Counted from the stretch's first letter, positions 4,981-13,681 are shown. The stretch is DNA of 41,716 nucleotides from Bacteroidota bacterium (GCA_006227105.1 SBFR01000093.1:1-41716), one strand, 5' to 3'. The notes: a model not told the origin generated them from the sequence alone. Numbers and translations are program-made.

Positions 4981-5008
4981 AATACACATGGTTTGTCGCA
5001 TGTGTATT
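4981..5008. terminator. Perfect 10-bp inverted repeat at the end of the minus-strand array
   Basis: AATACACATG-GTTTGTCG-CATGTGTATT, touching the stop codon of the 5008..5454 ORF. No clear T-tract, so the terminator role is tentative. Confidence 0.45.
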
Positions 5009-5454
5009 TAATGATCAATTTTAAATTTTTCTATGTTGAATTCTAGGGTGTGATCGCTATCAAGGCTTTCAGGATTTTGGATTTCCAATTTCAGTATCCG
5101 ATAAAATTTTTGCTCCGGATTTTTTCCCAAAGTGAATGTCATGTTTTTTATCAATTTGTTCAATTTAAAAATCGGTTGGACTTGGTGTGGGTCGATCAGT
5201 AAATGTATTGGGAATTGCTTTCTTCGTTCATCAACGAATTTTTCGTGTGGGTCGTCAAATACAATATATTCCAACTCAGCATTTAATTGAACGTTGGAAG
5301 CAAATTTACTCCATTGACTAGCAGAACTATTTTTGGCTGTTATATAAACACTATGAATAAGTAAATAACTATCCTTTGAATTCAATTTGAATTCTATTTC
5401 AGGAAATTCTTTATTTAGTTTTATTAGTTCCAATCTTATACCTTTTTTATGCAT
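5008..5454 (-). CDS. Hypothetical protein, last cassette of the array
   Basis: The ORF track starts at 5568, but its first ~38 codons are the attC-like repeat. The first Met outside it (MHKKGIRLELIKL, 5454) is the plausible start. Confidence 0.65.
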   Translation of the reverse strand: MHKKGIRLELIKLNKEFPEIEFKLNSKDSYLLIHSVYITAKNSSASQWSKFASNVQLNAELEYIVFDDPHEKFVDERRKQFPIHLLIDPHQVQPIFKLNKLIKNMTFTLGKNPEQKFYRILKLEIQNPESLDSDHTLEFNIEKFKIDH

Positions 5455-5456
5455 TA

Positions 5457-5589
5457 CCAATAACGGTTTGCAGCTTGGCGAAGTGGCGGATTTCAAGGTG
5501 CTTACTTTCAATTTAGCACTAAACTTTATTTGAAAAACTGACCTTGATAATAGCGCTGAACCCGCCATTTTGCCAAACTGCTGTTATGG
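5457..5589 (-). repeat. attC-like recombination site (copy 1)
   Basis: Minus strand: CCATAAC AGCAGTTTGGCAAAATGGCGG ... CCGCCACTTCGCCAAGCTGCAAACC GTTATTG. AAC/GTT-ended imperfect palindrome between two co-directional ORFs, with ends near-identical to 7795..7926. Confidence 0.8.
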
Positions 5590-5597
5590 GCTGGTTT

Positions 5598-5984
5598 TTA
5601 TCGCTCCTCAACAAATCTTAACATTCTATTTACTTCTCCACCAGGTGAGCAAATCGTGTTAGTTGCGTAATGGTTCCAATCTGCCTGCGTGCACCAATGT
5701 CTATGTGTTTTAGAACATCCAGATGTCCCACTTTCATTTGAAAGGAAAAAATAAACTAGTCTGCCATCATTTAATCTACCATATGACATATTATGTCCAT
5801 AAATAGTTCTAATCATTTTCCCATTCTCGTCTTTTTCTTCGTTTACTGAAGTAGGGACAAATTCGGTGTAATTTTCAGCCAAATACTCGTCAGTAATGTA
5901 GCTTACTAGAGATGCGTCTGTTGAACCTAGAAGTGCTAAGGTCTCTTTTTTCGCTTCTTCTGTTGTCAAAGTTTTGTCAATCAT
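5598..5984 (-). CDS. Hypothetical protein (cassette ORF)
   Basis: 128-aa ORF bounded by attC-like sites; MIDKTLTTEEAKKETLALLGSTDASLVSYITDEYLAENYTEF... Confidence 0.7.
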   Translation of the reverse strand: MIDKTLTTEEAKKETLALLGSTDASLVSYITDEYLAENYTEFVPTSVNEEKDENGKMIRTIYGHNMSYGRLNDGRLVYFFLSNESGTSGCSKTHRHWCTQADWNHYATNTICSPGGEVNRMLRFVEER

Positions 5985-6218
5985 TTTTTCAAATATTAAA
6001 TTTCCTACTCATTTGGCTTTTCGGTGTCGCCCCGTTTTTAAAGTGTTTGCTGGTCTTCACTTTTTGTTTGTTTTGTCACTTCGGGTGGTCAACCCATTGG
6101 CATTCGCAGACCTATTTTATTTTTAAGGAAATCTAATTTATCCAATTCATCCTCTGTTTACAGTTGTCAAAATATATTGTCGTTGTTGGTCGGTCGTAGT
6201 CGTGTCCGTTAAACTTGC

Positions 6219-6298
6219 CCATAACGGCTCTGAACTAGGCCAATTGGCGCTTTTCTCCGGTGTAATTGCTGCACCATTTTGCTTAGTGCATGTTTCAG
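6219..6298 (-). repeat. attC-like site (degenerate, second family)
   Basis: Plus strand: CCATAAC GGCTCTGAACTAGGCCAATTGGCGC ... GCACCATTTTGCTTAGTGCAT GTTTCAG. Inner arms CTAGGCCAATTGGCGC and CTAAGCAAAATGGTGC (reverse complement) agree at 12 of 16 positions. Confidence 0.7.
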
Positions 6299-6303
6299 AC
6301 ATC

Positions 6304-6801
6304 TTATTGTTTTTGCATTTTAATTATCAATCCAATTATGTAGATGCTTCTAATAAAAGTGGTCAAAATTAAAATCACAGTAAACACATTGACATAGAAC
6401 AACACATAATTATCTTCAGGAATAATGAAAATCTTGAGCAAATAATTTAGAATGGACACTAATACAAGTATGATAACTGATTTATTAATGAAGCGAACTG
6501 TCTGAAAATATAATGGAGAAGAAATGAAAATTAGAAAAGAATTACTTTTTTTCTTTAATTCTGCCTGTTCTATTAAAGAAGTTGTCTTGAAAGAAACTAG
6601 AATAGTGACTATGGTAATAAGAAAACCACTTAAAGTAAGTCCAATTGAACCTAGATCAGAACATGTTGAAACGTCATAAGATTGGTAAATATTTAGATAG
6701 CCATAATTATTTTCGTAAAGTTTTATGACGCCACAAAAGGCTGAACCAAGGATTGTATCAACAATTAACGGGTATTTGTATAGAACATCTAGAATTTTCA
6801 T
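6304..6801 (-). CDS. Small integral membrane protein (about 4 TM), second gene of a two-gene cassette
   Basis: Hydrophobic segments including DLGSIGLTLSGFLITIVTILVSF; ATGA overlap with the upstream ORF. Confidence 0.75.
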   Translation of the reverse strand: MKILDVLYKYPLIVDTILGSAFCGVIKLYENNYGYLNIYQSYDVSTCSDLGSIGLTLSGFLITIVTILVSFKTTSLIEQAELKKKSNSFLIFISSPLYFQTVRFINKSVIILVLVSILNYLLKIFIIPEDNYVLFYVNVFTVILILTTFIRSIYIIGLIIKMQKQ

Positions 6802-7778
6802 GATAATGATTTGATATAGTCTCTAAACGGTTCCATACTGTTGTCAAATAGACTTCTCGGCTTTACGTTTCCTTTTGTCTCTAATTCGCATTCTATTTCA
6901 AATTCAACTTTTCCTTTTAACAAATTCAAGCTATCGTTTGAGCCATCTTCTTTTTCATACTCAAGTTGAAATTCTTCGATGTCATCTAAAATTTCATTAT
7001 TATCATCGGCTTTCCCAAGCAGGTTCTTAACAAATTTGACGGCCTGTAGGTTTTTATATTTTGAATCTACCTTAACTCCTCTGCTTTTGAATGTGGCTTC
7101 AACTCTAATTGCTACAGGATTTACTGTATTTGCCAGAGCTTGCATATTTCCGATAAAAGATTCACCAATTACATTGTTTAAGTATGCTAATTTGTTTGGG
7201 TTTGCTTTTATTTTAAAATTTAGTACCTCACTCATATTATCGAGTACATCCTTGATGCTGCTATTCATGTGAATTTTTGCCTTACATGATTTGGATGACT
7301 TTAAAATTTTATTTGTGATTTGTCTGATATAATATTCAATATCTAAAATTCTTGGTCCGTGATAATTGTATTCATAGAAGAATCTGGGATGATCTCCTGA
7401 ATCATCAATTAGAAAGTGAGTGGTTTCCAAAAGTGAAGTGTCTCCTAATTCTGAGAGAGGTGTGATCGAGAAATTATCTCTATTGTATACCAGTGGAGTA
7501 CGGTTATCTCTTAACAATGCTATTCTACCTTTCCACAATCTATCCTTATGGTTGTATGAAATACTTGTTACAAAAAGTTCTCTTTTATCTGTTTCATTTT
7601 TACCGTTATTCCTATCAAAAACGACAACTTTTCGATTATTTATTCTTTCATTGTTTATGTATTCAATGCACTCTTTGAGTATTGCATTTGATGTAACAGA
7701 ATCCTCGTCGTCTTTATATGGCGTTAAAACAAGATCGAATACGTTAAACAATATTTTATCAGTTCGTGGTTGTTTCAT
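6798..7778 (-). CDS. Soluble hypothetical protein (326 aa), first gene of a two-gene cassette; candidate sensor/defence protein
   Basis: Long ORF directly after an attC-like boundary; MKQPRTDKILFNVFDLVLTPYKDDEDSVTSN...; translationally coupled to the 4-TM gene. Confidence 0.8.
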   Translation of the reverse strand: MKQPRTDKILFNVFDLVLTPYKDDEDSVTSNAILKECIEYINNERINNRKVVVFDRNNGKNETDKRELFVTSISYNHKDRLWKGRIALLRDNRTPLVYNRDNFSITPLSELGDTSLLETTHFLIDDSGDHPRFFYEYNYHGPRILDIEYYIRQITNKILKSSKSCKAKIHMNSSIKDVLDNMSEVLNFKIKANPNKLAYLNNVIGESFIGNMQALANTVNPVAIRVEATFKSRGVKVDSKYKNLQAVKFVKNLLGKADDNNEILDDIEEFQLEYEKEDGSNDSLNLLKGKVEFEIECELETKGNVKPRSLFDNSMEPFRDYIKSLS

Positions 7779-7794
7779 TATGGTTATCTATTGT

Positions 7795-7926
7795 CTGTAA
7801 CGGTTTGCAGCTTGGCGAAGTGGCGGATTTAGAAGCACTTACTTTCATTTTAGCACTAATGTTAATTTGAAAATCTAATATTCAATTTAGCACTGAACCC
7901 GCCATTTTGCCAAACTGCTGTTATGG
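7795..7926 (-). repeat. attC-like recombination site (copy 2)
   Basis: Same outer arms as 5457..5589 (TAACGGTTTGCAGCTTGGCGAAGTGGCGGATTT ... GAACCCGCCATTTTGCCAAACTGCTGTTATGGGCTGG) with a diverged centre. Confidence 0.82.
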
Positions 7927-7934
7927 GCTGGGCT

Positions 7935-10529
7935 TTATTGCTGTTTTAATTTTGTTTTTATTTCTTTAAATTTGTTGATATGTTCCTCTAAAATTTCAGG
8001 TGTAGGTATTATTCCAAATTCGTCTGATGGAAGATGTCCTTCAATTAAATCTGAAATCTCTCCGTGTTTCTCTACAACATCAAAAATAAGTGACTTTTCA
8101 TACTTAATATCTTTTAATTTTCCCATTCTGATTTGTGGGTCAAATCGTTGCACAGTTCCACCCAAAATGGTGAAAATCGCTAATGCTTCATAAGAAGTTC
8201 GCAAAGCAGACAAGCCTGCTTTGGTGCAATCAACTCTCTCGTTTCCGTTGACGGTTTTACTTTTTGCCAACCAACTTTCTGCTTTTGTAGGCTCGTGATA
8301 TTGTCCTTCATTTGCTGGACTTGTATTTGCCACAACTTTTCCGCAAAGCTGACTTTCTCGCTCTAAGGAATGATGTGCAAAGCTGTCATTAATTCCGTTT
8401 AAAAATTTCTTGCTGAAATTTTTAATATGATAAAAGAAAACCAAATCGTGTGTAAATATGATTACTTGCTTTAAAGTTGCTTGAAAAGCCAAACGTTCAG
8501 CAATTTGCTTTTTTCTATCATTGTCCAAAGAAGTGACAGGGTCGTCAAAAATAATTCCTTTGTTTACTTCGGATAATTGCATTTCTGCTAGAAAATCCGC
8601 AATGGCAATTACTTTTTGTTCGCCCTCACTTAAAACAGCATTAGGGTTTTTCCCTTTTAGTTTGAGTTGTCTGTAAGATTTACCTGCCGAACCTGTATGA
8701 TTGATATCAATTCCAAAATTTCCGTTAAGTTTTTGACATTCTTCGTTAAAAGCATCAATGTATTTTTGATTGAAATATTTGTTTGATAATGCTTTCTCCG
8801 TATCAGTCGTCTTGCGTTTTGCATAATCGGCTTTGTTGGCTTTTTTAATCCAAATCTGATTATTGACAAAAGTCTCAAACTTTGAAAAATGTGTGTTGAA
8901 CTTTTCTTTGTGTTCTAAAAGTGTTTTTGAGTTCAGCAATTTTTCTAACTCCTTACTTTGCTCATCTTCTCTTAGCAATTTTATAGAAGCATCAATAGCT
9001 GTTTCTATTGTTGTGTGTTGTTCAACATTAATTTGCAATGCTGTTCTTTCAGTTGCTATTTTGTTTTGAATATCAGAAACAATGTTTTGAGCAAGTGTTT
9101 TTTGCTCAGTAAGTTTCAGTTTTAATACTTCTAACTCTTCTGAAAATTTTTCAGTCAACCAAACAGTAAGCGTATTGTCTTGCGGAAATAAATCAAAGTT
9201 TAAATTCTCATAATTTACATTTGCTTTATCCAATTTTTCTTGTGCTTTTTTTGCGTTTTGTTCCGCAACGCTTTTTATAAAAATCCAATAATTTGAAATT
9301 AGCGTTTGGGCTTCGTCTGAAAGTGGCTGTTGGCAAAGCAAGCAATTATCTCCATTTTCGGGATAAACCACATTTTCATTTTTTTGCGTTTTAGCAAATT
9401 CTTCGGCAGAAACTATAAAATTTTTCCATTCCGTTGTTCCTACGTTTTCAATTTTATCGGTCTTAAAATTTTCAATTCCTTCAGTTTTTGCTGTCGCTTC
9501 TTTTGAAACACAATCCGAAATAGCTGTTTTTATTTCTTCAATTACTTCAGTTGTGAAAAACTGATTAAGTTTTTCAATTGCTTGTTTATTTTGAGCAACC
9601 AAACTTTTAATACTTTCAAGACTTTTTATTTCTTTCTCTTTTCCTTTTGAAGCTAAAAGAAGGTCATCATATTGTTTTTGTATCGCTTCTTTTTGGGTTT
9701 TATCTTCATCAGAAAAAGGCGTGTATTTTTTTAAGTCGTCAATTTTTGTTTCTGCTTTCAGATTTTGAACGATAGTTTTTATTTCAGAATTACCGTCAAA
9801 CAAAGCCGATAAATCATCTGCTGTGTTTCCTGTTTGTTTGGTTTGAATTTCAGCATTTAATTTTTGCTCCACACGAATGATTGCATTTGTGTAATCAGCA
9901 AAAAAACTTAATCCTGCTGGTCTAAATTCAAATTCGTTTCTGTTTTCAAGATGTTTTAAAACGCTGTTTCCGTCAAAAACTGCAAATTGCTCAAATTCTG
10001 CATTGTCTTTATCAGAAAAACCTAATGGAATTTCAGTATTGCTTGATTTGAAAGTAAATTTTGCATCAATGGCTTTGTGTCCATTATCAATATGAACATT
10101 AGGTAAAATATTTTCGGGTGCTTTTGAATAAAAAACGGTTTTCAATAGCCTTACATAACCTGATTTTCCTGAGCCATTTGCACCATAAATAATTGTTAGG
10201 TTAGGACTAAATTCAATTGTTTGATTTTCTGTTAAGGCGTTTACGCCTTCAACATTTTCAAGTTTTGTTAGAAGTAAATCCGATTTATAATTTCCTGCAT
10301 TCTCGGCATTGTAGTCAATCTCAATTTCAGGTTTTTCGGTTTCTTCTTTAAGTTTTAGATGTTCAAGTAAATAAGAACAAGAAGTATCAATATCGTTTTC
10401 AGAAATAGTATTGCCACATAAAATTTTCTCTGCAAGAAATTTTGCCCAATAGGGAAGTCCGTCAGCGAATTTCTTCACTTCCGTTTCAAGTGTTTCCACC
10501 TGTTGTTCTACTTCTGTATTGTCGTTCAT
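7935..10529 (-). CDS. AAA family ATPase, RloC/PrrC-like (AAA_13-like) with zinc-hook CxxC
   Basis: Walker A (IYGANGSGKSGYVRLLK), long coiled coil with CLLCQQPL, ABC signature LSEGEQKVIAIADFLAEM, Walker B GIIFDDPVTSLD, switch-like IIFTHDLVFF, plus a C-terminal domain. Confidence 0.85.
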   Translation of the reverse strand: MNDNTEVEQQVETLETEVKKFADGLPYWAKFLAEKILCGNTISENDIDTSCSYLLEHLKLKEETEKPEIEIDYNAENAGNYKSDLLLTKLENVEGVNALTENQTIEFSPNLTIIYGANGSGKSGYVRLLKTVFYSKAPENILPNVHIDNGHKAIDAKFTFKSSNTEIPLGFSDKDNAEFEQFAVFDGNSVLKHLENRNEFEFRPAGLSFFADYTNAIIRVEQKLNAEIQTKQTGNTADDLSALFDGNSEIKTIVQNLKAETKIDDLKKYTPFSDEDKTQKEAIQKQYDDLLLASKGKEKEIKSLESIKSLVAQNKQAIEKLNQFFTTEVIEEIKTAISDCVSKEATAKTEGIENFKTDKIENVGTTEWKNFIVSAEEFAKTQKNENVVYPENGDNCLLCQQPLSDEAQTLISNYWIFIKSVAEQNAKKAQEKLDKANVNYENLNFDLFPQDNTLTVWLTEKFSEELEVLKLKLTEQKTLAQNIVSDIQNKIATERTALQINVEQHTTIETAIDASIKLLREDEQSKELEKLLNSKTLLEHKEKFNTHFSKFETFVNNQIWIKKANKADYAKRKTTDTEKALSNKYFNQKYIDAFNEECQKLNGNFGIDINHTGSAGKSYRQLKLKGKNPNAVLSEGEQKVIAIADFLAEMQLSEVNKGIIFDDPVTSLDNDRKKQIAERLAFQATLKQVIIFTHDLVFFYHIKNFSKKFLNGINDSFAHHSLERESQLCGKVVANTSPANEGQYHEPTKAESWLAKSKTVNGNERVDCTKAGLSALRTSYEALAIFTILGGTVQRFDPQIRMGKLKDIKYEKSLIFDVVEKHGEISDLIEGHLPSDEFGIIPTPEILEEHINKFKEIKTKLKQQ

Positions 10530-10573
10530 ATTTGTATTAATTATTTATATTTCGACTGTCGTTTTAGCCTTGC

Positions 10574-10651
10574 CCATAACGGTTCTCAACTAGGAGACGC
10601 GGGCTTCTTGATTAAGTTTGTTCAGCCCGTGGCTTTTAGTTGATGTTATAG
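10574..10651 (-). repeat. attC-like site (second family, well formed)
   Basis: CCATAAC GGTTCTCAACTAGGAGACGCGGGC TTCTTGATTAAGTTTGTTCA GCCCGTGGCTTTTAGTTGAT GTTATAG: imperfect palindrome with unpaired bases in one arm. Confidence 0.8.
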
Positions 10652-10656
10652 TTCGT

Positions 10657-11115
10657 TTATTTTATCACTCCATTATCAACTTTAAAGATTAACCTTTCGG
10701 ATAAAGCATCCTCATTCTCGAAAAGTACTTCACACTTTAATTCGTTGCTTAACTCTTCTATGAAGCCAGTTATTTTGATGTAATTTTCTTCGGTCAATTC
10801 AGTTGGTCCTCTATCGTTAAACCATAATTCTAAGTGTTCCGCACTTTTAATGAATCCATCAATTCTAAACCCATTAAGGTCAATCTCTAGTGATGGCCAA
10901 TATTCTCTTTCTGAATTAAAGTAATCAACTATTTCTTGAGCTTGAATGTCAATTGAGATTCCAAATTCAGTTGTTTCATATTGCTTAAAATATCCTTTTA
11001 ATTTTAAGTAAGTTAGAAAATTAGACCATCTGCGTATATCCATCTCTCTAACAACAATATTGTACGTTTGGGAGAAGTTATCTTTAATATCTGTTTTAAA
11101 GTTGATCCAATTCAT
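10657..11115 (-). CDS. Hypothetical protein (152 aa, cassette ORF)
   Basis: ORF ends 5 nt from an attC-like site; MNWINFKTDIKDNFSQTYNIVVREMDIRRWSNFL... Confidence 0.7.
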   Translation of the reverse strand: MNWINFKTDIKDNFSQTYNIVVREMDIRRWSNFLTYLKLKGYFKQYETTEFGISIDIQAQEIVDYFNSEREYWPSLEIDLNGFRIDGFIKSAEHLELWFNDRGPTELTEENYIKITGFIEELSNELKCEVLFENEDALSERLIFKVDNGVIK

Positions 11116-11140
11116 GTTCTGTTGTACTCTGGGCTATGAA

Positions 11141-11204
11141 CTATAACTAGTTTATACACGCAATGTAAATAAATTAATTGCGCATTATATACCTAAATTG
11201 GTAG
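11141..11204 (-). repeat. Degenerate attC-like (or attI-like) site at the upstream edge of the array
   Basis: CTATAAC TAGTTTATACACGCAAT gtaaataaatta ATTGCGCATTATATACCTAA: paired arms around ATTGCG/CGCAAT; the outer GTT is degraded. Confidence 0.5.
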
Positions 11205-11290
11205 GTAAAAGGAAGTTTAAAGATTGTTAATATCATTTTCAATTAGCATAATTAAATCGATTACCAGTCTTTATTTAAATGATTACTGAA

Positions 11291-11452
11291 CTATACTATT
11301 ATCGCATTCTTTGACTTCTTCTTTGTAGATTTACTTGGCTTTAAGGAGGGAGTATTTCCAGGTGTGTTTTTGTTATCTCTTTGACGCTGATCAGGTTTAC
11401 CAGTTGAGATAGCAGTTCTTTTTGGCCCCGGTTTAATGGCTTCTACTTTCAT
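11291..11452 (-). CDS. Possible small basic protein (53 aa)
   Basis: MKVEAIKPGPKRTAISTGKPDQRQRDNKNTPGNTPSLKPSKSTKKKSKNAIIV; below the ORF-track cut-off, Lys/Arg rich. Confidence 0.35.
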   Translation of the reverse strand: MKVEAIKPGPKRTAISTGKPDQRQRDNKNTPGNTPSLKPSKSTKKKSKNAIIV

Positions 11453-11896
11453 ACTTTTCTTTTGATTAAAAATAGAATGAGTTTCAGAAAATGGCTATAG
11501 GTATTTCTACTCAATTTTATTCTGATAGGTGGTATTCAGTTCAAAAAAGAGGTAAGAATATTATTACAGATAATAATAAAACCTTCAAATACACATTTAT
11601 AGCTATTATTTCAAATAGATCAATATGATCATTTTCTATGGATGAAAAGGGAATTCGTCAAACGGGGTAAAACCCCGTCAAACGACGTAAATAGTCGAAT
11701 TTTTATCAGAGATTATCTTCGATGACTTGAACAAATTGATTGATTGAAATTTCAGGTGAAATTAGAATTATTTGTTGGTGAGAATCAATGAAATCTGAGG
11801 GATCTTGAGTCTCAGAAGTGAGCAAAAGGAATTTATTTTTTTCGGATTGAATTAAAAATTCAATGAAAACAGATTCATTCTCTTTTATCCATTTCA

Positions 11897-12049
11897 ATGG
11901 GATTCGACTATGACAATGTGTTGAGTTACCAGTACGGGGTAGCCGGAGTTATAATAGACAATAAAATTGTATGCATTGACAGTGCGGGAGACCCAATACT
12001 GGCTTGTAAGTTCGATGAGGGCTATGATTGCTTCTCTAAACGAATTTGA
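11897..12049 (+). pseudogene. Relic of a WG-repeat protein (about one repeat)
   Basis: MGFDYDNVLSYQYGVAGVIIDNKIVCIDSAGDPILACKFDEGYDCFSKRI* fits the WG beta-repeat rhythm (YDxV...G.IDxxGxxIxxxKFDEGYDxFS). Confidence 0.5.
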
Positions 12050-12114
12050 ATTCAGATACAACTGAAGAAATCTTGACACCCTTATGTTCAACCTGATTTT
12101 GGAACGAATTTAAT

Positions 12115-12804
12115 TCAATCTTGACCTGCTTGGTCGGTTTCAGAACTCTCATTAACTGGGTTTTCATCAAGCACCTCTTTTATCGAGTCGCTGAAATAAA
12201 CTCCATGATTCATTTGACTAATTGTGAAGATATTAATTGTCATCTGAACAACTAAAAACAAGGAATACAAAATCAAAAACACTGCAATACTCAGATATAT
12301 GCTATTAATTAACAGGTTGGTTTCTTGATCTGGGCAAGAAAACGAGAATCTTAAACCTATACTGTACCCGAACAAAATTATTAAGGTTATTACCTGAATA
12401 AAAACTGCAAAGCCAAATTTCGCAACAGCCGTTTGATAGCTTGAAAATCCGGGAGCCTCTTTCTTAACAAATGCCTCTGTAATGTTGAGTTTGACCATGT
12501 GTTTCAATAGCCGTTCACTTCCAAAAGTGACGATTAGGGTAAGTCCCGCCAAAGTGAGACCAATTAATCCACCATCCAAACTCATCCCAATATCAATAAC
12601 AGAAGCAATTTGATCTAGAACCTCATTGGAATCGAATCCACCCAAAAATGAAATAAAGAATACAACAAGAGACAAAATAAAAGCAAGAATAAAGCTGGGC
12701 TTCCATAAAAATGAAGCCCCGCCATAAACCTTGAAAAGTCCTCGAAACCCCATGGGGTGGAGTCTTTCAAAATCATTTTTGTTCTGCTGTTTCGCTTTCG
12801 CCAT
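12115..12804 (-). CDS. Integral membrane protein (about 4 TM), paired with the upstream soluble gene
   Basis: MSLDGGLIGLTLAGLTLIVTFGSERLLKHM in TM2; same topology and motif as the 6304..6801 protein; overlaps the upstream gene by 32 nt. Confidence 0.8.
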   Translation of the reverse strand: MAKAKQQNKNDFERLHPMGFRGLFKVYGGASFLWKPSFILAFILSLVVFFISFLGGFDSNEVLDQIASVIDIGMSLDGGLIGLTLAGLTLIVTFGSERLLKHMVKLNITEAFVKKEAPGFSSYQTAVAKFGFAVFIQVITLIILFGYSIGLRFSFSCPDQETNLLINSIYLSIAVFLILYSLFLVVQMTINIFTISQMNHGVYFSDSIKEVLDENPVNESSETDQAGQD

Positions 12805-13681
12805 TATTCTTTCCTGTAATGTTGTTGTAAATCTTTCTTAAGAAGTTAATAAATCTTGCCGCACCTTTTTCAGAATCTGCCGAATTTATTGAAGGGTAAT
12901 CCAAAGAATTTACGTTTTTCCTACCCTCTTCGTTTTCAATTACTGCTTTCACCATCCCATTATCTTTGGCAAGTTCCAACAGCCCTCTAGTCATTCCTTT
13001 TTCAGTATTTATTTTTCCAGTATTGTCCGGTTTCAATCTGCCGAAAAAATCCCCAATGTGGTTCTCCTTCATCAATGAGTCCATCAGTTTCTTACCCTCC
13101 GGCAAAACATCGTCATTGGTATAAGAAACTCTAAACTGTAGAGACAATAAATTACTAGCCAGGATTTCATCGAATACAAACTGTTCCTGTTCCACCTCTA
13201 CGACAGCATGTTCTCCAACCTCCAATCCATTATCAAAAGCCACCTTTATCACTTCCTTCATTTTATTCAAAGGTGCTCCAGACTTCTTGATATCGGGATC
13301 AATTTTGCCTACCTTAATTATTGCAAATCTGTGCTTCTCTGGGATGAAGACAAACTCATGCTCACTTACTCTTGCTTCAGCGTTGTCAGGAATCGGGTGT
13401 GGTATCAGTCGCTGGGTGATTTTATCTACAAAGTCTATATTTTCAAAAGAAACATATTTGGTAACCACACCATAATATACCTTCCCGTCATCAACTTTAT
13501 CAAGTTTTCTCAAGGAATAGTAATGGCGTTTATCCCCCGGTGTCATTATCCCATATCCATTGTTGTACCAGTTCAATAAAAGCGATTCATACCTCTTGGT
13601 ATTGCCATTGGTTGCCGGAAGCACCTTTACATTTAGAGTATAATAATCAACGGTGATTTTAAGTTTTGGTTTTCTCCCCAT
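12773..13681 (-). CDS. Soluble hypothetical protein (302 aa), possibly DUF4747-like
   Basis: MGRKPKLKITVDYYTLNVKVLPATNGNTKRYESLLLNWYNNGYGIMTPGDKRHYYSLRKLDKVDDGKVYYGVVTKY...; family guess from recall only. Confidence 0.75.
   Translation of the reverse strand: MGRKPKLKITVDYYTLNVKVLPATNGNTKRYESLLLNWYNNGYGIMTPGDKRHYYSLRKLDKVDDGKVYYGVVTKYVSFENIDFVDKITQRLIPHPIPDNAEARVSEHEFVFIPEKHRFAIIKVGKIDPDIKKSGAPLNKMKEVIKVAFDNGLEVGEHAVVEVEQEQFVFDEILASNLLSLQFRVSYTNDDVLPEGKKLMDSLMKENHIGDFFGRLKPDNTGKINTEKGMTRGLLELAKDNGMVKAVIENEEGRKNVNSLDYPSINSADSEKGAARFINFLRKIYNNITGKNNGESETAEQK

What the first reader, a model, noticed from the sequence alone, without database searches (positions are those of the whole stretch)
6304..13681. 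Two copies of the same two-gene architecture: ~300-aa soluble protein + 4-TM protein with a shared IGLTL(S/A)G motif
Pair A (6798..7778 and 6304..6801) and pair B (12773..13681 and 12115..12804) have the same gene order, overlapping coding regions and protein sizes. The membrane partners share a four-helix topology and a matching TM2: DLGSIGLTLSGFLITIVTILVSF versus SLDGGLIGLTLAGLTLIVTFGSE. Both TM2 segments are preceded by a short acidic/polar segment and followed by a charged stretch. The soluble partners also look distantly parallel (GRIALL/GVVTKY strand; THFLIDDSGDHPRFFYEYN versus HEFVFIPEKHRFAIIKVG; P...LDIEYYIRQI versus P..KMKEVIK). Pair A sits inside an attC-bounded cassette; pair B lies ~5 kb away in the same accessory region. 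A soluble sensor coupled to a membrane effector is a common layout for abortive-infection-type defence, so this is a candidate undescribed mobile system. The function is inference.
Basis: partly seen in the sequence, partly recalled or inferred. Interest (0 to 1): 0.82.

Follow-up and report, generated by a model that had tools for sequence, protein, structure and literature searches.

The report
Two divergent RexAB-type phage-exclusion gene pairs
Both gene pairs look like distant relatives of the lambda phage RexA/RexB exclusion system (a DNA-binding sensor plus a four-helix membrane protein that aborts infection); one belongs to a family already linked to phage defence and the other to a family that sequence databases do not recognise and only structure prediction exposed.

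Summary
All four genes are real and at the stated coordinates. Each soluble gene overlaps a downstream four-TM gene. Pair B's soluble protein is DUF4747 (Pfam PF15931). DUF4747 + four-TM pairs are already a described defence type ("DUF4747/CarolAnn", RexAB-like), so the system is not undescribed. Pair A matches no Pfam, NCBIfam, PADLOC or PHROGs family, but relatives occur patchily across Bacteroidota. All 12 relatives whose downstream DNA was available carry the four-TM partner next door, and several lie beside known defence genes. Its AlphaFold model hits lambda RexA (8TWQ) as top PDB match (E 2.8e-5, probability 1.00, whole length) without sequence similarity. Pair B's low-confidence model hits RdgC and CENP-N/CHL4, published structural relatives of RexA. 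The two pairs are not recent copies: soluble proteins show no sequence similarity, and the shared IGLTL string is within chance (694 of 5,000 shuffles share a 5-mer). They are two diverged members of one architecture. Most likely: RexAB-type abortive infection, where the soluble protein senses phage DNA or proteins and opens the membrane protein, depolarising the cell. Fold and architecture are computed; function is inferred. New here: a Bacteroidota branch missed by sequence models, in an integron-like cassette array.

The parts
6798..7778 (-). Pair A soluble protein, 326 aa: RexA-fold protein of an unnamed Bacteroidota family
   Evidence: No Pfam/NCBIfam/PADLOC/PHROGs match; relatives found by search; AF2 model pLDDT 74.6; Foldseek vs PDB top hit lambda RexA 8twq, E 2.8e-5, prob 1.00
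6304..6801 (-). Pair A membrane protein, 165 aa, four TM segments; RexB-like candidate pore. Conserved TM2 signature SD-x5-[LI][ST]-x2-GF-x5-T-x4-FK
   Evidence: Hydropathy and positive-inside counts; alignment of 13 relatives; TM2 is the most conserved region
12773..13681 (-). Pair B soluble protein, 302 aa: DUF4747 (PF15931)
   Evidence: Pfam 64.5 bits vs cut-off 27; AF2 model low confidence, Foldseek top hits RdgC 2owl E 4.1e-4 and CENP-N/CHL4
12115..12804 (-). Pair B membrane protein, 229 aa, four TM segments; DUF4747 partner
   Evidence: Hydropathy; same partner position and similar size in L005, L006, L007, L027; weak phrog_20580 match
7796..7932 (.). attC-like imperfect palindrome between the AAA ATPase cassette and pair A
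   Evidence: 83% direct repeat of 5447-5605; folds as a long hairpin
6215..6300 (.). Degenerate attC-like half-site 3' of pair A
   Evidence: CCCATAACGG..GAACTAGG repeat shared with 10564-10594; no full hairpin
7935..10529 (-). Neighbouring cassette gene: 864-aa AAA ATPase, PADLOC candidate defence family PDC-S06 (context, not part of the pairs)
   Evidence: E 3.8e-115; Pfam AAA_13

Best explanation
Both pairs are RexAB-type two-component phage-exclusion modules. The upstream gene makes a soluble protein with the RexA/RdgC fold. By analogy with RexA and its characterised relatives it forms a DNA-binding dimer that recognises infection (phage replication or recombination DNA, or a phage protein). 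The overlapping downstream gene makes a four-helix inner-membrane protein with both ends and the TM2-TM3 loop in the cytoplasm. When the soluble partner is activated it acts on that loop, the membrane protein opens as an ion channel or pore, membrane potential and ATP collapse, and the infection aborts. Computed here: gene order, conservation as neighbours, four-TM topology, fold of A (good) and of B (weaker). Inferred: DNA binding, activation, depolarisation and defence. Pair B is a member of the DUF4747/CarolAnn type. Pair A is a separate, sequence-unrecognised branch carried in an integron-like cassette array.
For: Pair A model vs PDB: two RexA chains (8twq) first and second, E 2.8e-5 and 7.4e-5, prob 1.00, about 330 columns; next hit E 0.03, prob 0.13. 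Viral library: five uncharacterised phage proteins at E 3.8e-16 to 2e-6 over the full length. Pair B: DUF4747 above cut-off. Its model hits RdgC first (E 4.1e-4, prob 0.96), then CENP-N/CHL4 among the next ranks; RdgC and CHL4 are named as structural relatives of RexA by its crystal paper (PMC11077077). The four-TM partner lies immediately downstream in all 12 pair A relatives with downstream DNA held, at -29 to +3 nt, and in all four pair B relatives. Topology N-in/C-in with a basic TM2-TM3 loop, the arrangement predicted for Sbash gp31, where R70A and D73A in that loop abolish defence (PMC6426596). Neighbours of pair A relatives include QatC/QatD, AbiLi/AbiLii, AbiJ-like, PycC-like and PDC-S02; the window's own neighbour is PDC-S06.
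Against: TM-scores to RexA are low (about 0.3) and rmsd is 17.8 A. This fits a different domain arrangement (the paper describes a closed crystal versus an open AlphaFold form) but is not a clean superposition. Pair B's model is pLDDT 50 and its C-terminal half is unreliable. No sequence profile links A to B or to RexA, CarolAnn gp44 or Butters gp30, and the PF15969 and PF15968 models do not match. RexB has no significant similarity to either membrane protein. The defence-gene association has no background control. No experiment.
Confidence: 0.75

Rival explanations
1. Butters mode: the soluble protein is the antiviral effector and the membrane protein holds or tempers it, instead of being the pore.
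For: Butters gp30 alone blocks phages and co-expression of gp31 weakens the block (PMC7542560). Same gene order and four-TM partner as here.
Against: Sbash, CarolAnn and P. putida pairs need both genes, with the membrane protein as effector. TM2 is the most conserved region of pair A's membrane family; this is only indirect.
Confidence: 0.12
2. Toxin-antitoxin pair: the four-TM protein is a membrane toxin and the soluble protein its antitoxin, unrelated to phage sensing.
For: Two overlapping genes, a membrane protein, and a cassette array, a setting where toxin-antitoxin pairs are common (general knowledge).
Against: The soluble partner is upstream and larger (twice the size in pair A), with RexA/RdgC fold. 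In RexAB-pp over-expression of the RexA-like protein is what causes RexB-dependent growth inhibition, the reverse of an antitoxin (PMC12894663).
Confidence: 0.08
3. The soluble proteins are RdgC-like DNA-handling proteins with a membrane anchor, serving recombination or regulation and not defence.
For: RdgC is pair B's top structural match; RexA also biases the lambda genetic switch.
Against: Rare and patchy distribution (about 1% of sampled genomes), cassette or plasmid location, defence neighbours, and published exclusion activity of DUF4747-type pairs.
Confidence: 0.05

Closest known systems
Lambda RexA/RexB exclusion system
   Same: Gene order, soluble + four-TM architecture, RexA fold (pair A top PDB hit)
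   Different: No sequence similarity; not beside a repressor in a prophage; lambda genes are separated by 15 nt instead of overlapping; RexB 144 aa versus 165 and 229 aa
DUF4747/CarolAnn prophage system (CarolAnn gp44/gp43, Sbash gp30/gp31)
   Same: Pair B carries DUF4747; overlapping genes; four-TM partner; topology
   Different: CarolAnn gp44 itself does not match Pfam DUF4747, only weakly by published HHpred; pair B has no repressor next to it; pair A has no DUF4747 match
P. putida RexAB-pp (PP_5643/PP_5644)
   Same: Link to RexA found only by profile/fold comparison; four-TM partner; DNA-binding soluble protein (published)
   Different: Sequence not compared here; prophage-borne in a Pseudomonas
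Butters gp30/gp31
   Same: Soluble + four-TM, 8-nt gene overlap
   Different: Reported reversed roles; 403-aa soluble protein; no profile similarity
RdgC
   Same: Fold of pair B model
   Different: Housekeeping recombination factor without a membrane partner (general knowledge)

Membership tests
RexAB-type exclusion system (architecture and fold) | Soluble gene immediately upstream of a four-TM membrane-protein gene | tested here: met
   Both pairs and all confident relatives with downstream sequence
RexAB-type exclusion system (architecture and fold) | RexA/RdgC two-domain fold of the soluble protein, pair A | tested here: met
   8twq top hit, prob 1.00 over the whole length; TM-score low, probably because of domain arrangement
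RexAB-type exclusion system (architecture and fold) | RexA/RdgC fold of the soluble protein, pair B | tested here: inconclusive
   RdgC and CENP-N/CHL4 top hits from a model of pLDDT 50
RexAB-type exclusion system (architecture and fold) | N-in/C-in four-TM topology with cytoplasmic TM2-TM3 loop | tested here: met
   Hydropathy and K/R distribution; no dedicated topology predictor
RexAB-type exclusion system (architecture and fold) | Non-specific DNA binding and dimerisation of the soluble protein | not testable with these tools
   Needs purified protein
RexAB-type exclusion system (architecture and fold) | Phage exclusion requiring both genes, with membrane depolarisation | not testable with these tools
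   Needs phage assay
Lambda RexA / RexB sequence families (PF15969, PF15968) | Match to the Pfam models | tested here: not met
   No match for either pair; lambda proteins match as control
DUF4747/CarolAnn system | DUF4747 domain (PF15931) above the curated cut-off, pair B | tested here: met
   64.5 bits, cut-off 27
DUF4747/CarolAnn system | DUF4747 domain (PF15931), pair A | tested here: not met
   No match in any of 13 family members; hhalign to pair B family probability 1.4%
Integron gene cassette | Gene unit flanked by attC sites, pair A | tested here: inconclusive
   attC-like palindrome on one side, degenerate half-site on the other; no integrase above the IntI cut-off in the draft genome

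The most novel reading that the evidence does not exclude
RexAB-type modules form a large and very diverse superfamily, widespread well beyond Proteobacteria and actinobacteriophages and mostly invisible to sequence models. They circulate in Bacteroidota as stand-alone defence cassettes (integron-like arrays, plasmids, defence islands) and not only as prophage exclusion genes, so one genome can stack two of them a few kilobases apart, perhaps with different triggers.
Probability: 0.4. Interest if true: 0.6.

Novelty: new member of a known kind. Interest (0 to 1): 0.45.

Why it matters
The DefenseFinder survey reported RexAB only in Proteobacteria and warned that its models might be limited (PMC9090908); a January 2026 paper counts only five described RexAB-like systems (PMC12894663). 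Pair A's family is spread over Bacteroidota with no model in any library tried, which suggests that the class is undercounted. A family with an almost invariant TM2 signature also offers a way to ask how RexA-like sensors activate RexB-like channels, a question the lambda rII exclusion work left open.

Tried and rejected
Direct A-B paralogy by sequence: rejected. The IGLTL motif as evidence: rejected (not kept in pair B relatives). Known-family scans of pair A: only noise hits (DUF3080 0.015, Csx1 0.0045). Single-protein searches of viral and genome contigs, plasmids and phages for A and B: no relative, apart from one plasmid hit with a pair B relative; a two-sequence alignment then found 11 loci for A. 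Viral-contig scans with A3, A4, A6 and one L005 protein failed on the server, so viral relatives were not sampled with those queries. DUF6731 (remembered as a possible relative): one locus, no TM partner, no Pfam link, dropped. PDB sequence profiles gave no hit. L004, L009, L025 and L026 are weak hits without the gene pair or not examined further. A background control for defence-gene neighbours was not run.

Full report
Observation. The four ORFs exist as described: 6798-7778 (326 aa) and 6304-6801 (165 aa), 12773-13681 (302 aa) and 12115-12804 (229 aa), all on the minus strand, soluble gene first, overlapping by 4 and 32 nt. The small proteins each have four hydrophobic segments; the large ones have none. 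The basic residues lie at the N-terminus, in the TM2-TM3 loop and at the C-terminus of pair A's family, which puts both ends and that loop in the cytoplasm.

The soluble proteins do not align and 1493 of 2000 shuffles score as well. The membrane proteins give a weak alignment (15 of 2000 segment-preserving shuffles reach it). Profile against profile gives probabilities of 1.4% and 3.5%. IGLTL is the only shared 5-mer and 14% of shuffles share one. In pair B's relatives the segment reads LLAGF, LLGGF or LLGGY, so the identity is not an inherited motif.

Pair B. Its soluble protein is DUF4747 (PF15931, 64.5 bits against a cut-off of 27). Relatives occur in three genomes of one other Bacteroidota genus and on a Hymenobacter plasmid next to restriction-modification genes; each has a 206-209-aa membrane protein overlapping its 3' end. 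The literature describes this layout as a prophage defence: CarolAnn gp44/gp43 (PMC6426606), Sbash gp30/gp31 (PMC6426596), Butters gp30/gp31 (PMC7542560), and "DUF4747/CarolAnn prophage system" in 17 CapK/CapS-linked operons (PMC13373217). Those phage papers compare it to lambda RexA/RexB; the Sbash and CarolAnn papers propose that the soluble protein senses infection and opens the membrane protein as an ion channel.

Pair A. No library recognises it. Searches found one clear relative in 396 phylum genomes, eleven loci with a two-sequence alignment (Flavobacterium, Pedobacter, Mucilaginibacter, Sphingobacterium, Pontibacter, Agriterribacter and others) and two more in the class sample (one of them, L023, carries the same gene pair as L020). 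A weaker hit, L024, has the same layout and matches the family profile at 92.6% over 73 columns. In all 12 confident loci with downstream DNA the membrane gene follows at -29 to +3 nt. Around these loci PADLOC finds QatC and QatD upstream (L013), AbiJ-like, AbiLi and AbiLii (L012), a PycC-like gene upstream and a PDC-S36/PD-T4-1-like gene downstream (L014) and PDC-S02 (L020). The window's neighbouring cassette is a PDC-S06 ATPase. There was no background control for this association.

Fold. AlphaFold2 on the 13-sequence alignment gave pLDDT 74.6. Against the PDB the only matches below 0.001 are the two chains of lambda RexA, 8twq (E 2.8e-5 and 7.4e-5, probability 1.00, 330-337 columns); the next is 0.03 with probability 0.13. 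Global superposition is poor (TM about 0.3, rmsd 17.8 A). The RexA paper reports that the crystal is closed while AlphaFold predicts an open arrangement (PMC11077077), so a domain rearrangement is the likely cause, but I could not superpose the domains separately. Against viral models, five uncharacterised phage proteins match over their full length (E 3.8e-16 to 2e-6). Pair B's model from only four sequences is weak (pLDDT 50), yet its top match is RdgC (E 4.1e-4, probability 0.96), with yeast CHL4-position and human CENP-N chains among the next ranks. RdgC and IML3/CHL4 are the structural relatives that the RexA paper names; that CENP-N is the human counterpart of CHL4 is general knowledge. 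The order of strands and helices in the first 200 residues is much the same in the two models.

Mechanism. The simplest account is RexAB-type abortive infection: a DNA-binding, infection-sensing soluble protein activates a four-TM channel. In Sbash gp31, R70A and D73A in the loop after TM2 abolish defence (PMC6426596). In the homologous CarolAnn gp43 a TRVKDL stretch with an R and D three residues apart lies just after TM2; equating them is my inference. In pair A's family TM2 and its exit are the most conserved region, with invariant G59, F60, T66, F71 and K72. P. putida RexAB-pp gives the clearest published precedent: DNA-binding RexA-like protein, predicted pentameric membrane partner, partner-dependent toxicity (PMC12894663). 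None of this was tested for the window's proteins.

Setting. Pair A lies in an array of attC-like palindromes (about 5459-5590, 7796-7932, 10570-10652), with only a degenerate half-site on its own 3' side. The two close copies occur nowhere else in the draft genome. No integrase above the IntI cut-off was found, but the assembly is 256 contigs and 89% complete. Pair B has no attC-like flank that I could see.

Novelty. The kind is known. Pair B is a new member of the DUF4747/CarolAnn type. Pair A is a new, sequence-unrecognised branch of RexAB-type modules in Bacteroidota, where the DefenseFinder survey, using public family models for RexAB, had seen RexAB only in Proteobacteria (PMC9090908). 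The two pairs look like independent acquisitions of one architecture, not duplicates.

Noticed in passing
window 5998-6065 (-): Rfam DUF805 RNA (RF03081, 78.5 bits, gathering 51.1) directly upstream of the 128-aa ORF 5598-5984 inside the cassette array.
   Followed up: no
window 7935-10529 (-): 864-aa AAA ATPase matching PADLOC candidate defence family PDC-S06 (E 3.8e-115), followed by its own attC-like site.
   Followed up: partly
window 10657-11115 and 5008-5568 (-): Further small ORFs in or next to the attC-like array with no Pfam or PADLOC family.
   Followed up: no
L014:3826-4932: PycC-like (Pycsar cyclase model, E 3.9e-13) gene about 50 nt upstream of a pair A homologue; possible linked regulator or adjacent system.
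   Followed up: no
L005, L006, L007: In three genomes of one genus the DUF4747 pair sits directly downstream of a patatin-like gene (GGGxxGAFQAGVL..GISVGS, by eye); host gene or system part is undecided.
   Followed up: no
L024:574-1986: A more distant pair of the same layout (301 aa + 167 aa four-TM) whose soluble protein matches the pair A profile at 92.6% over 73 columns, hinting at a larger superfamily.
   Followed up: partly
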